Assembly (NCBI RefSeq): GCF_001544615.1
Contig: NZ_FCNV02000011.1
Location: forward strand, 1-64,000
DNA: 64,000 bases
Origin: Caballeronia concitans
Lineage (GTDB): Bacteria; Pseudomonadota; Gammaproteobacteria; Burkholderiales; Burkholderiaceae
Reading direction: 5' to 3'
The position numbers and the translations under genes are program-made. Positions 45,108-47,389 of the stretch are shown in pieces; the stretch's first letter is position 1, and the number at the start of each line of letters is the position of its first letter. Under the pieces are notes generated by a model. That model was not told the origin of the DNA. It saw only the letters and a program-made list of their open reading frames with translations, and did not search any database.

Positions 45108-45184
45108 CCGCCCTTAGCTCAGTTGGATAGAGCAACGGCCTTCTAAGCCGTAGGTCACACGTTCGAATCGTGTAGGGCGGGCCA
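45108..45184 (+). tRNA. tRNA-Arg (TCT)
   Basis: A 77-nt cloverleaf with acceptor CCGCCCT / AGGGCGG, anticodon loop CTTCTAA giving TCT (reads AGA), T-arm ACACG-TTCGAAT-CGTGT and encoded CCA. An accessory-looking gene pair lies directly downstream, and tRNA-Arg genes are common integration sites, but I found no repeated 3' end nearby. Confidence 0.95.
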
Positions 45185-45211
45185 AGTGGAAGTCATCAGG
45201 ATTCAAGCAAG

Positions 45212-45243
45212 ACGCCGCCCTCAAGGGCGGCGTTTTCGTTTTT
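45212..45243 (+). terminator. Terminator after tRNA-Arg
   Basis: The stem ACGCCGCCCT-CA-AGGGCGGCGT is followed by TTTCGTTTTT, 28 bases after the tRNA. It may also stop the reverse-strand gene at 45296. Confidence 0.82.
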
Positions 45244-45295
45244 CGCTTGTCCGATTGCGCCCGATGATGGTTGGTCATGCCTGGACTGCGGCGAA

Positions 45296-45712
45296 TCACC
45301 GGTATTCATCGATGTCGATCTCGATACCCATCGAGTCGGCAATCGCTCTAATGTCGTCCGGAACATCGGGCACGCGGTTGCCCTCGTAGTTGGCCCAATA
45401 ACAGAAGAAACGAGCGTGGCCGTTCTGTCGCTCCAGCAGTGCGCGAAAATCGGCGCGCGGCAGGGCGAGCCGGGAGACAAGATATCGGAAATGCGGCGTC
45501 AACTCGTCACTGCTCACGGCCTCCTCGCTAGAAATGCTCCAGATTCCTTGACGCCACGCAAAGGCGCTCTGCTGCCCAGAACGCGTCAGGCGAGGCTGCC
45601 CTTTCACTCCTGCGGTCGAAGGTGTTACGTCGAAGTATTTCGTCCAGAATTCGGGCAGCTCGACGTCCTGATAGATGCAAAACGAGGCATAGGCTAATTG
45701 GCGTGTTGTCAT
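45296..45712 (-). CDS. DUF4279 domain protein, probable immunity protein
   Basis: A 138-residue soluble protein that fits the DUF4279 family: the N-terminal AYASFCIYQDVELPEF strand, DVTPSTAGVKGQ, a WRQGIWSISSEEAVSSDELTPH segment, FFCYW near residue 106 and an IEIDIDEYR end. DUF4279 proteins are often found beside polymorphic toxins and are regarded as immunity-like. It starts 12 bases after the stop of the toxin-like gene, the usual toxin-then-immunity order. No signal peptide, so it would act in the cytoplasm. Direct neutralisation of the neighbour is inferred. Confidence 0.78.
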   Translation of the reverse strand: MTTRQLAYASFCIYQDVELPEFWTKYFDVTPSTAGVKGQPRLTRSGQQSAFAWRQGIWSISSEEAVSSDELTPHFRYLVSRLALPRADFRALLERQNGHARFFCYWANYEGNRVPDVPDDIRAIADSMGIEIDIDEYR

Positions 45713-45724
45713 GATCGGTGCGAC

Positions 45725-46453
45725 TCAATAGCTGTGCATGTTGTCAATTTTGTTGCCGTTGAAATACACGTCGCCGTTGTCGTGCCAAACAACGTTGTCG
45801 TCGCCGCGTAATTGATTTGCAGCCTTCATCACGTGAATCATGTCGCCGAACTCATCGCGGTCGTATCCAAGCATCTTCGCGGCGTAATCGGGGTTGGTCG
45901 TGCTGGCGGCAACGTCCATGACATCGTCGCCCAGATCCTCCGGCACGTAGTCAAACGGCGCCGCATCGCTCAATGCCGTGTCAGTCAACGCCGTGGCGAT
46001 TCTTCCGTCCGGCAGCACGTCGCCCGGTTTTGCCGCCATGATCGCGAAGAAATCGTCGGCGGGCAGTCTCCGCAGCGTCGAAGGCGTGAACGTACGAACG
46101 GCCGCTGTCACATTGGCCCCGCGACTGAACAATTGCGAGGGTGTGAACGTGACTGATCGTGGTCTCGGCGCATCATCGCCGCGGCTGCCGCGCAGGCCGC
46201 TGCTGGGCGCATCCGGAATCGTCAGCAACTCTCCCGATTCGATGGCGCGCCGGACTTTCCATCGAGCGATCTGTACGTCGTCTTCGTCGAGTTCGAGCAG
46301 GGTACACGCGCGCGAGATGAACGCCTGATCGTGCTCCCACTTGAATGAGTCAGCCAGAAATGCGCGCGCCGCTTGCGTCGCCCGATCTCTCTCCTTCATG
46401 CTTGCGAACCCTGCATCGCGTCGACGGTATAGCGTGAGCGAGCGATCCTGCAA
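45725..46453 (-). CDS. Putative polymorphic-toxin-like protein with C-terminal tip domain
   Basis: About 242 residues, no recognised family. Residues ~20-85 are helical and charged (FLADSFKWEHDQAFISRACT). A Ser/Arg-rich linker and a PADDFFAIMAAKPGDVLPDG segment follow. The last ~60 residues look like a compact domain with conserved-looking polar residues (GYDRDEFGDMIHVMK, DNVVWHDNGDVYFNG, DNMHSY). The layout of variable body, compact tip and downstream DUF4279 gene is that of a polymorphic toxin. TTG at 46453 has GGAG five bases upstream; ATG at 46399 is the alternative. No secretion signal, PAAR, VgrG or Rhs repeats are seen. Confidence 0.55.
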   Translation of the reverse strand: MQDRSLTLYRRRDAGFASMKERDRATQAARAFLADSFKWEHDQAFISRACTLLELDEDDVQIARWKVRRAIESGELLTIPDAPSSGLRGSRGDDAPRPRSVTFTPSQLFSRGANVTAAVRTFTPSTLRRLPADDFFAIMAAKPGDVLPDGRIATALTDTALSDAAPFDYVPEDLGDDVMDVAASTTNPDYAAKMLGYDRDEFGDMIHVMKAANQLRGDDNVVWHDNGDVYFNGNKIDNMHSY

Positions 46454-46930
46454 CCGAACTCCGTTTCGCAACTGCGCCTCCTTCCGCGAGCCGAATGCCG
46501 CCTCACGAAGCGCTGGATGCACTACATCGCGGCGTGCTGCTTGATAATGCGGACTTGCGCGCGGAGCGGGAAGGCGATTGTTCCGAATGTTGGCGAAGAA
46601 AACCGGACGTAGCCGTCGAGGGACGACGAATTGTTCGTTCGCGTCAGGCCGCACTTCTGAAACGTCCGGAGCGCAACCGCTCCTACCGTCGCCAACGAAG
46701 TAGCACCGCCGCTTTCAGAATGCCCATACGGCCCATCCCTGGCCCACTTCCTGCCCGCATTTCGCCCCGTGTCCCTGCGCGAGGCGACCGCTCGACGGCC
46801 CGAGCCCCGCGCGTCGACCCGTCAGCAAGATCGAACCGGCGCGCCCCCGCATCGCACCGATCCGCATTGGTGCGCGCATGCATCGCGATGGCGCGTCATG
46901 CACCGGATGAATCGTCGGAAGAGGGCGACA
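46454..46930. other. Intergenic region, no convincing gene
   Basis: About 480 bp between the divergent toxin-like and receiver-like genes. The open frames are basic, arginine-rich and lack ribosome binding sites. Promoters for both directions should lie here but no clear boxes were found. Confidence 0.45.
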
Positions 46931-47389
46931 TTGAACAATCGAGCATACGAAACCAGTCCGGCGCAATGCTCGCTATGGAATCGCAAGCGGCTGCGCGTAA
47001 TAGCCGAATCACGACGCGTCCTCGTCGCGCAGACGGAGCGCGCGCTCGGCGAATCGCTCGTGTCGCTGTTCGACCTGAAGGGCTTTCCCGCGCGTTACGC
47101 GCCCGATGTCGCATCGCTCAAAAGCGGCGTGAGCGAATGGCGGCCGCACGCGGTGTTCGTCGATACGCGCATCGGCGGTTGCGCCAACTATGCGCTCGTG
47201 CGCGAACTGCGCGCGCATCACGATGACGACGCGCATCGCCTCGTCATCGCGATGAGCGGCTTCCTGCCCGAAGAGCCGCTCGCGCATCTGAAGGAAGCAG
47301 GCTACGACGGCCATTGCCGCCGGCCCTGTCCCGTGTGGCAGATGACCGACATCCTCGACGAATTCTTCGCCTGCCATCTCGTGCGCTGA
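46931..47389 (+). CDS. Degenerate response-regulator receiver-like protein
   Basis: The C-terminal ~115 residues follow the CheY fold. RVLVAQTERALGESLVSLF is strand 1/helix 1, AVFVDTRIGG carries a possible phosphoacceptor Asp, VIAMSGF holds the Thr/Ser position, and CRRPCP stands where Lys-Pro is normal. The acidic pair of strand 1 (usually DDE) is reduced to QTE and the Lys is lost, so phosphorylation is doubtful. No output domain follows. The TTG at 46931 has GAAGAGGG upstream; ATGs at 46898 and 46907 are alternatives. Function unknown. Confidence 0.6.
   Translation: MNNRAYETSPAQCSLWNRKRLRVIAESRRVLVAQTERALGESLVSLFDLKGFPARYAPDVASLKSGVSEWRPHAVFVDTRIGGCANYALVRELRAHHDDDAHRLVIAMSGFLPEEPLAHLKEAGYDGHCRRPCPVWQMTDILDEFFACHLVR

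What the first reader, a model, noticed from the sequence alone, without database searches (positions are those of the whole stretch)
45296..46453. Orphan toxin-like protein with DUF4279 immunity-like partner beside tRNA-Arg
Seen: a 242-residue protein with no recognised family and a compact C-terminal ~60 residues rich in H/D/N/W, followed after 12 bases by a DUF4279 protein. Both lie just after tRNA-Arg in an otherwise core region. Known: DUF4279 proteins are commonly encoded beside polymorphic toxins. Inference: the C-terminal tip (DNVVWHDNGDVYFNG...DNMHSY) is a small toxin and the upstream part a delivery or regulatory domain. No PAAR, VgrG, Rhs, TPS or signal peptide is visible, so delivery would be novel, or the pair could be a cytoplasmic toxin-antitoxin or defence module.
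Basis: partly seen in the sequence, partly recalled or inferred. Interest (0 to 1): 0.72.

Follow-up and report, generated by a model that had tools for sequence, protein, structure and literature searches.

The report
Swappable toxin tip with its antidote
A soil bacterium related to Burkholderia carries a small two-gene weapon cassette, an exchangeable toxin tip plus the matching protective protein, probably used to kill neighbouring bacteria and built on protein parts that the family libraries searched do not describe.

Summary
The pair is a polymorphic toxin-immunity cassette. (1) All 40 distinct full-length relatives of the 60-residue tip are followed within 60 bp by a DUF4279 gene. (2) The same front part with another or truncated tip lacks DUF4279 (0 of 16). 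(3) The tip sits behind other front parts, including an RHS core protein and, in Agrobacterium, a PAAR-like protein beside VgrG. (4) Against the genome's second copy, front parts are mostly 77-88% identical in DNA, tip and immunity gene 40-60%. The pair is a ~1.5 kb insert beside tRNA-Arg; 15 of 29 congeneric sites compared are empty.

T6SS delivery is likely but not shown: two relatives lie inside T6SS gene clusters, but 0 of 20 VgrG neighbourhoods carry the family and VgrG co-occurrence shows no excess. The tip has invariant H25, K28, N56 and H58; a nuclease is inferred. Neither tip nor front part matches Pfam or NCBIfam.

The parts
45725..46471 (-). toxin/effector gene, 248 aa, TTG start
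   Evidence: Start: AGGAGG 46482-46477 with 5-base spacer; aligned with starts of relatives. No Pfam/NCBIfam/PADLOC hit for the ORF from 46453.
46190..46471 (-). N-terminal domain (about residues 1-94), ending '..ARWKVRRAIESGELLTIPD'; no known family
   Evidence: Conserved in relatives with different tips; related by hhalign E 4.2e-7 to another front-part type. Matches in 12 of 398 family genomes, a lower bound.
45986..46189 (-). middle segment with 'TFTPSQLF' and 'PGDVLPDGRIATAL' motifs
   Evidence: P149 G150 D151 P154 G156 I158 A159 invariant in 15 rows.
45908..45985 (-). linker 'DAxPFxYxPxxxxxDxxxxA' just before the tip, shared by different front-part and tip types
45728..45907 (-). toxin tip, 60 aa (residues 189-248); invariant A9 M12 G14 Y15 F20 H25 K28 N56 H58
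   Evidence: 39 distinct sequences aligned. 40 of 40 distinct loci followed by DUF4279. Homologue fused to Tox-PAAR-like in Agrobacterium, hhalign E 1.3e-11.
45296..45712 (-). DUF4279 immunity protein, 138 aa
   Evidence: PF14106 24 bits; hhalign E 1.7e-11 to E. coli DUF4279.
46477..46482 (-). Shine-Dalgarno AGGAGG of the toxin gene
   Evidence: Sequence.
45108..45184 (+). tRNA-Arg(tct), left edge of the insertion
   Evidence: ARAGORN; in most congeners listed homology ends at or near its 3' end.
45185..46868 (.). segment holding the pair; 15 of 29 congeneric sites compared have only 184-334 bp here
   Evidence: recounted: tRNA 3' end to conserved response-regulator sequence is 1685 bp in the window.

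Best explanation
The pair is a polymorphic effector-immunity cassette used against other bacteria. SHOWN by comparison: the protein is modular (front part, shared linker, exchangeable 60-residue tip); tip and DUF4279 gene occur together and have been exchanged as one unit near the linker/tip boundary; DUF4279 goes with this tip and not with the front part. INFERRED, in falling order of confidence: the tip is a toxin and the DUF4279 protein binds and neutralises it in the producer and its kin (about 0.93); the front part takes the protein into a contact-dependent injection machine, most likely one of the genome's T6SSs, as cargo (about 0.55); the tip acts in the target cytosol as a small nuclease, probably an RNase, using invariant H25 and K28 and possibly H58 (about 0.45). 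By eye the DUF4279 protein has no signal sequence, which fits a cytosolic target.
For: Tip-immunity linkage 40 of 40 distinct full-length tips, 19-40 bp from tip end to DUF4279 domain start, against 0 of 16 for the same front part with another or truncated tip (12, 4 more); Fisher p 2e-14 (loci are not independent). Swap within this genome: the second copy at G000:C14 has a 73% identical front part, 56% tip, 44% immunity; synonymous change is much lower in the front part (54 of 140 sites) than in tip plus immunity (95.7 of 133), p 3e-8. The window's tip is nearer (dS 0.84) to one behind a different front part in C. catudaia than to its own paralogue's (dS 2.2). Carriers: RHS core (TIGR03696, E 4e-21) with this tip and DUF4279; Tox-PAAR-like PF13665 fusion in a VgrG-DUF2169-PAAR operon in Agrobacterium; DUF4279 beside DUF2169 and PAAR-like genes in E. 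coli. T6SS: relatives between the tssM and tssJ genes of two T6SS clusters, one in this genome (TssM, TssJ, TssK confirmed by Pfam); VipB in 24 of 25 genomes with a match versus 25 of 33 without, one-sided p 0.036. Published: PAAR-Rhs-Ntox33 with a predicted DUF4279 immunity protein in Salmonella (PMC13304343, passages read).
Against: No toxicity, binding or secretion data. VgrG co-occurrence shows no excess: 22 of 25 genomes with a match have a TIGR03361 hit, 28 of 33 without (p 0.52). 0 of 20 VgrG neighbourhoods, from five genomes of the genus, carry the front part, tip or DUF4279. Of 41 P0001 matches 2 lie within 30 kb of a VipB match, where I estimate about 0.8 by coverage (compared by eye). 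The two T6SS clusters with a member were fetched because they have one; of 16 further regions fetched, 13 hold tssJ and none has a member; both members there have odd or truncated N-termini. One of 20 further tip loci has a vgrG-to-PAAR cluster about 2.4 kb away, with two unrelated genes between. The Agrobacterium tip has a partner that is not DUF4279 by Pfam. The co-occurrence p values ignore phylogeny. Some relatives are prophage-borne. H58 is not kept in the Agrobacterium relative, so the catalytic proposal is weak. No structure could be predicted.
Confidence: 0.7

Rival explanations
1. Same toxin-immunity pair, but exported by a route other than T6SS: prophage particles, another contractile injection system, or an unknown exporter that recognises the front parts or linker.
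For: Three IMG/VR contigs carry the tip. In L065 two cassettes with the linker lie about 2.5 kb after an internal-virion-protein gene (PHROG 511, E 8e-96; layout). VgrG neighbourhoods examined lack the family, and VgrG co-occurrence shows no excess.
Against: Most of the 17 loci laid out look like core chromosome by eye, although L058 and L063 have mobile-element-like genes nearby. The PAAR-like fusion beside VgrG, members in T6SS clusters and VipB co-occurrence point to T6SS.
Confidence: 0.23
2. Cytoplasmic toxin-antitoxin module that acts within the producing cell.
For: Two-gene cassette on a small genomic insert; partner without signal sequence by eye.
Against: Long modular front part with swapped tips; tip on RHS and PAAR-like carriers; lone, in part frameshifted, tip+DUF4279 cassettes behind other genes, as expected of polymorphic-toxin reservoirs.
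Confidence: 0.04
3. Anti-phage defence module.
For: Located on a small insert at a tRNA gene.
Against: No PADLOC model matches; no known sensor, nucleotide-binding or nuclease domain by Pfam or NCBIfam.
Confidence: 0.03
4. Degenerate or non-toxic remnant: a protein of ordinary function that happens to neighbour DUF4279.
For: Some relatives are broken (G025, G038:C1, G005:C110).
Against: Window copy intact, dN/dS 0.17-0.24, strict tip-DUF4279 linkage, tip swapping.
Confidence: 0.03

Closest known systems
Polymorphic toxin systems (Zhang et al. 2012, PMC3482391; start of abstract in listing and two table passages read)
   Same: Constant front part, exchangeable C-terminal domain, partner gene directly downstream, lone tip+partner cassettes.
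   Different: Protein is short (248 aa); no Pfam or NCBIfam domain in it, and none for 20 tip members at better than E 0.03.
RIX-type T6SS cargo effectors (PMC10435454; abstract and passages read)
   Same: Short N-terminal domain before diverse toxins in one bacterial lineage; the window's start is also rich in arginine (10 in the first 60 residues, no control for the GC-rich genome).
   Different: RIX is reported only in Vibrionaceae and Moritellaceae; no sequence relation could be tested, and secretion is not shown here.
Ntox33 with DUF4279 immunity (PMC13304343, passages; PMC3482391, passage)
   Same: DUF4279 partner; similar size (Ntox33 model 65 positions; tip model 62); an HxxK pair.
   Different: 0 of 20 tip members match Ntox33 at E<=10; the published motif is [DN]xHxxK, while H-2 here is M in 34 and I in 5 of 39. 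The fold of the tip is unknown.
PAAR-like (PF13665) T6SS effectors with DUF2169
   Same: The Agrobacterium L088 protein carries a homologue of this tip; the E. coli L089 protein is followed by DUF4279.
   Different: The window protein has no PAAR-like domain by Pfam and no VgrG or DUF2169 gene was recognised beside it (by eye).

Membership tests
Polymorphic toxin-immunity system | Constant N-terminal part joined to different C-terminal domains | tested here: met
   Same front part before at least four tip classes.
Polymorphic toxin-immunity system | Same C-terminal domain on different carriers | tested here: met
   11 BLAST clusters of front parts among the 37 of 40 tips with 30 or more upstream residues, one of them RHS (TIGR03696); a few singletons may be frameshift debris.
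Polymorphic toxin-immunity system | Cognate immunity gene directly downstream, specific to the tip | tested here: met
   40 of 40 with DUF4279 within 60 bp; 0 of 16 same-front proteins with another or truncated tip. Exception outside the family: the Agrobacterium tip has another partner.
Polymorphic toxin-immunity system | Toxicity neutralised by the partner | not testable with these tools
   Needs expression and binding experiments.
T6SS cargo effector | Producer has a T6SS | tested here: met
   Two VipB genes in G000, four VgrG-model matches of which two pass the cut-off, one PAAR motif match.
T6SS cargo effector | Gene linked to vgrG/hcp/PAAR or T6SS cluster | tested here: inconclusive
   Window copy is not linked. 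Two relatives lie in T6SS clusters; 13 further clusters with tssJ have none; 0 of 20 VgrG neighbourhoods; 1 of 20 further loci has a vgrG/PAAR cluster 2.4 kb away.
T6SS cargo effector | Known marker (PAAR, Rhs, MIX, FIX, RIX) | tested here: inconclusive
   No PAAR or Rhs by Pfam or NCBIfam. MIX, FIX and RIX profiles as such were not run.
WHIX effectors (PMC12135965, passages read) | WHxxxH motif in the front part | tested here: not met
   No WH pair in residues 1-188 of the window protein (sequence).
T6SS cargo effector | T6SS-dependent secretion | not testable with these tools
   Needs a secretion assay with a tssC deletion.
Ntox33 (PF15533) | Match to the family profile | tested here: not met
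   0 of 20 members at E<=10.
DUF4279 (PF14106) | Match to the family profile | tested here: inconclusive
   E 4.9e-5, 24 bits, one bit under the curated cut-off; hhalign E 1.7e-11 to a clear member. I treat it as a divergent member.
RIX | Homology to the 55-residue RIX domain | not tested
   No RIX sequence was at hand; taxonomic range differs.

The most novel reading that the evidence does not exclude
The interchangeable front parts joined by the 'DAxPFEY' linker are a Burkholderiaceae-specific set of T6SS secretion domains, like RIX in Vibrionaceae, each loading a short cargo effector whose tips (a new 60-residue HxxK nuclease family among them) are exchanged as toxin-immunity cassettes between chromosomal docking sites, prophages, RHS and PAAR-like carriers.
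Probability: 0.38. Interest if true: 0.7.

Novelty: new variant of a known kind. Interest (0 to 1): 0.52.

Why it matters
The authors of the RIX paper speculate that further family-specific T6SS secretion domains exist in other bacterial families (passage read). This family is a concrete, short and easily tested candidate in Burkholderiaceae. It also gives DUF4279, a domain that Pfam still lists as of unknown function, a strictly linked partner, and adds a 60-residue toxin-like family small enough for structural and mechanistic work. Because the window copy and most relatives examined are not beside vgrG, surveys that start from vgrG would miss them.

Tried and rejected
Tip as a known domain: Pfam and NCBIfam scans of 20 tip members at E<=10 gave only sub-threshold matches (best HTH_29, 5 of 20 members, E 0.03; best in NCBIfam E 0.054); Ntox33 not matched. 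A search of 369 genomes for Ntox33 found none, and none in the controls, so it says nothing. PDB sequence searches with tip, immunity and front-part profiles gave nothing below E 0.2. A direct vgrG link was sought and not found in 20 VgrG neighbourhoods from five genomes, two of them short contig ends. An exact repeat of 10 or more bases of the last 40 tRNA bases at the far side of the insert was not found. Promoter scan gave no site; two terminator-like sites equal the chance number. Class-wide search found the tip in no genome but this one of 369. The tip search in phages gave one hit at E 0.7; weak Aminobacter plasmid hits (residues 28-53 only) were looked at and dropped. The E. coli PAAR-like C-terminus is only weakly like the tip (hhalign probability 44%, P 2e-4) and is not counted as a homologue. 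A Pfam scan of the RHS-tip piece gave nothing; NCBIfam gave TIGR03696. Cytoplasmic toxin-antitoxin and defence readings were considered and set low.

Counts left out: partial tip matches and repeats (same tip and same 60 residues before it) were dropped before the 40 of 40 count. Before the 0 of 16 count I dropped the broken loci L018 and L032, which do have DUF4279, and the fragments L036 and L159, which do not. One of the 16, L019, has a truncated tip.

Full report
WHAT IS THERE. On the - strand of the window, beside tRNA-Arg 45108-45184, lie a 248-codon gene (45725-46471) and, 12 bases after it, a 138-codon gene (45296-45712). An earlier TTG at 46471 has AGGAGG five bases upstream and lines up with the start codons of relatives, so it is the more likely start. 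The second gene matches DUF4279 (PF14106) at 24 bits, one bit below the curated cut-off, and its family profile matches a clear E. coli DUF4279 protein with hhalign E 1.7e-11. The first gene matches nothing in Pfam, NCBIfam or PADLOC. The genus is most likely Caballeronia: same-genus genomes have contigs of exactly the length of records titled Caballeronia sp. GAFFF1, C. catudaia, C. arvi and Burkholderia sp. 8Y.

IT IS MODULAR. A scan of genome contigs gave 13 loci, all Burkholderiaceae. Some share nearly the whole protein, some only residues 5-190, some only the last 59-94 residues. A profile search over ORFs of the loci then held showed the same front part with other tips: one with 'HNW' motifs, one with 'DVDYFD..HGHNF', Cys-containing ones ending 'CRGF' or 'CRGY', and others. 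The last 60 residues also occur behind different front parts; upstream regions of 37 of 40 tips (three were too short) fall into 11 BLAST clusters, although a few singletons may be frameshift debris. One cluster is an RHS core protein cut by a contig end (TIGR03696, 75 bits, cut-off 32.5; no Pfam hit) with this tip and then DUF4279. I call the window's front part type A, that of L007/L024/L027/L037 B, of L008/L023/L026/L044 C, of L030/L039 D. By profile comparison A and D are related (E 4.2e-7), B and C too (E 4.5e-10); A-C and A-B are weak (E 0.034 and 0.002). Most carry a linker like 'DAxPFEYxPDxxSxD' before the tip.

TIP AND DUF4279 TRAVEL TOGETHER. Of 40 distinct full-length tips, 40 are followed by a DUF4279 domain 19-40 bp after the tip end. 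Of 16 distinct proteins with the window's front part but another or truncated tip, none has DUF4279 downstream in the DNA held (12, 4 more). Fisher's test gives p 2e-14, though the loci are related by descent. The genome holds a second pair at G000:C14. Front parts are 73% identical in protein, tips 56%, immunity proteins 44%. In DNA, identity is mostly 77-88% along the front part, apart from one block at 55%, and 40-60% from about window position 45858 on, within the first third of the tip. Synonymous differences are 54 of 140 sites in the front part and 95.7 of 133 in tip plus immunity, p 3e-8. So tip and immunity gene were exchanged as one cassette. Lone tip+DUF4279 cassettes, in part frameshifted, stand behind other genes in L007, L009 and L012, a usual sign of a polymorphic-toxin reservoir (recalled).

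THE SITE. In 15 of 29 congeneric loci compared (of 57 other genomes in the search), the tRNA-Arg 3' end and a conserved response-regulator-like gene are 184-334 bp apart; in the window 1685 bp. Three have 935-1034 bp there and eleven had no match to that gene in the stretch held. The pair is thus a ~1.5 kb insert. By eye there is no integrase gene, and no att-like repeat was found. GC is about 0.56 over the tip and DUF4279 gene against about 0.65 in both flanks. Different front-part types occupy what looks like the same neighbourhood in different species (L054, L059 and L061; L052, L053 and L060; read by eye).

HOW IT PROBABLY WORKS. The pattern is that of a secreted antibacterial toxin with a cytosolic immunity protein. 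Evidence on the exporter is mixed. For T6SS: a homologue of the tip (hhalign E 1.3e-11) is fused to a Tox-PAAR-like domain in a VgrG-DUF2169-PAAR operon of Agrobacterium larrymoorei, though with a partner that is not DUF4279; an E. coli DUF4279 gene follows a DUF2169 and a PAAR-like gene, whose C-terminus is only weakly like the tip; a gene with part of the type A front, this tip and DUF4279 lies between the tssM and tssJ genes of G022, in the opposite direction to them, and a truncated relative with another tip lies between tssK and tssJ of this genome's own T6SS cluster (TssM, TssJ and, in this genome, TssK confirmed by Pfam); VipB is present in 24 of 25 genomes with a match and 25 of 33 without (one-sided p 0.036), the exception, G025, holding only broken pieces. 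Against: VgrG (TIGR03361) is present in 22 of 25 and 28 of 33, no difference (p 0.52); the two T6SS clusters with a member were fetched because they have one, and 13 others with tssJ have none; 2 of 41 matches within 30 kb of VipB is little above my rough expectation of 0.8; 0 of 20 VgrG neighbourhoods from five genomes hold the family. Of 20 further tip loci, one has a vgrG-to-PAAR cluster 2.4 kb upstream with two unrelated genes between. I put T6SS delivery at about 0.55. Prophage-borne copies, including two cassettes about 2.5 kb after an internal-virion-protein gene in L065, keep another route open.

THE TIP. In 39 distinct sequences A9, M12, G14, Y15, F20, H25, K28, N56 and H58 are invariant. 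The Agrobacterium relative keeps H25, K28 and N56 but not H58. A small domain with an HxxK pair recalls Ntox33, described as alpha+beta with '[DN]xHxxK' (PMC3482391, passage read), and a Salmonella Rhs-Ntox33 protein is reported with a predicted DUF4279 immunity protein (PMC13304343, passages read). But no tip member matches the Ntox33 model, so I do not file it there. A nuclease, probably an RNase, is my inference.

DISTRIBUTION. The tip is found in 38 of 398 sampled genomes of the family, in 5 of 25 genera; the window's N-terminal domain in 12 of 398, in 3 of 25 genera. Both are lower bounds, since only the best 12-15 candidates per genome were scored. In a class-wide sample of 369 genomes only this genome had the tip.

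NOVELTY. The kind, polymorphic toxin with immunity, is well known. The tip family and the front parts are not in the libraries searched. Full-text searches for DUF4279 (3 papers), DUF4279 with immunity (2), Ntox33 with toxin (3), type VI secretion with Paraburkholderia, polymorphic toxin and immunity (10), type VI secretion with effector and Caballeronia (16, 10 listed), RIX with MIX domain, polymorphic and type VI secretion (6), and polymorphic toxin, Burkholderia, T6SS, N-terminal domain and cargo effector (14, 10 listed) showed nothing that, from the listings and the passages read in six papers, describes this family. No whole paper was read, no supplement was opened, and most subscription journals are not covered.

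Noticed in passing
L092:2240-4622 and L065:3293-9819: Two tandem cassettes with the PFEY linker and different tips lie about 2.5 kb after an internal-virion-protein gene (PHROG 511, L065:3293-4939), with three ORFs between, in a podovirus-like prophage; possibly toxins carried or injected by phage particles.
   Followed up: partly
L054, L059, L061 (one neighbourhood) and L052, L053, L060 (another): Different front-part types occupy apparently the same intergenic site in different species, as if fixed chromosomal docking sites exist for these cassettes (by eye).
   Followed up: no
L047:9418-9894: In this genome's own T6SS cluster a truncated relative with a Cys-containing 'CRGF' tip sits between tssK and tssJ; similar tips end L163, L164 and L039.
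   Followed up: partly
L002, L003, L013, L033 and L004, L005, L006 C-termini: Two further tip classes (HNW and DVDYFD/HGHNF) with small downstream genes; the four downstream proteins scanned (L002-L005) match no Pfam family above its cut-off.
   Followed up: partly
L015:1477-2662 (G000:C14): Second intact pair in the same genome, next to a DsbA/FrnE-like gene (by eye).
   Followed up: yes
window 46769-47389: Single-domain response-regulator-like gene (PF00072, 20 bits, below cut-off) next to the insert.
   Followed up: no
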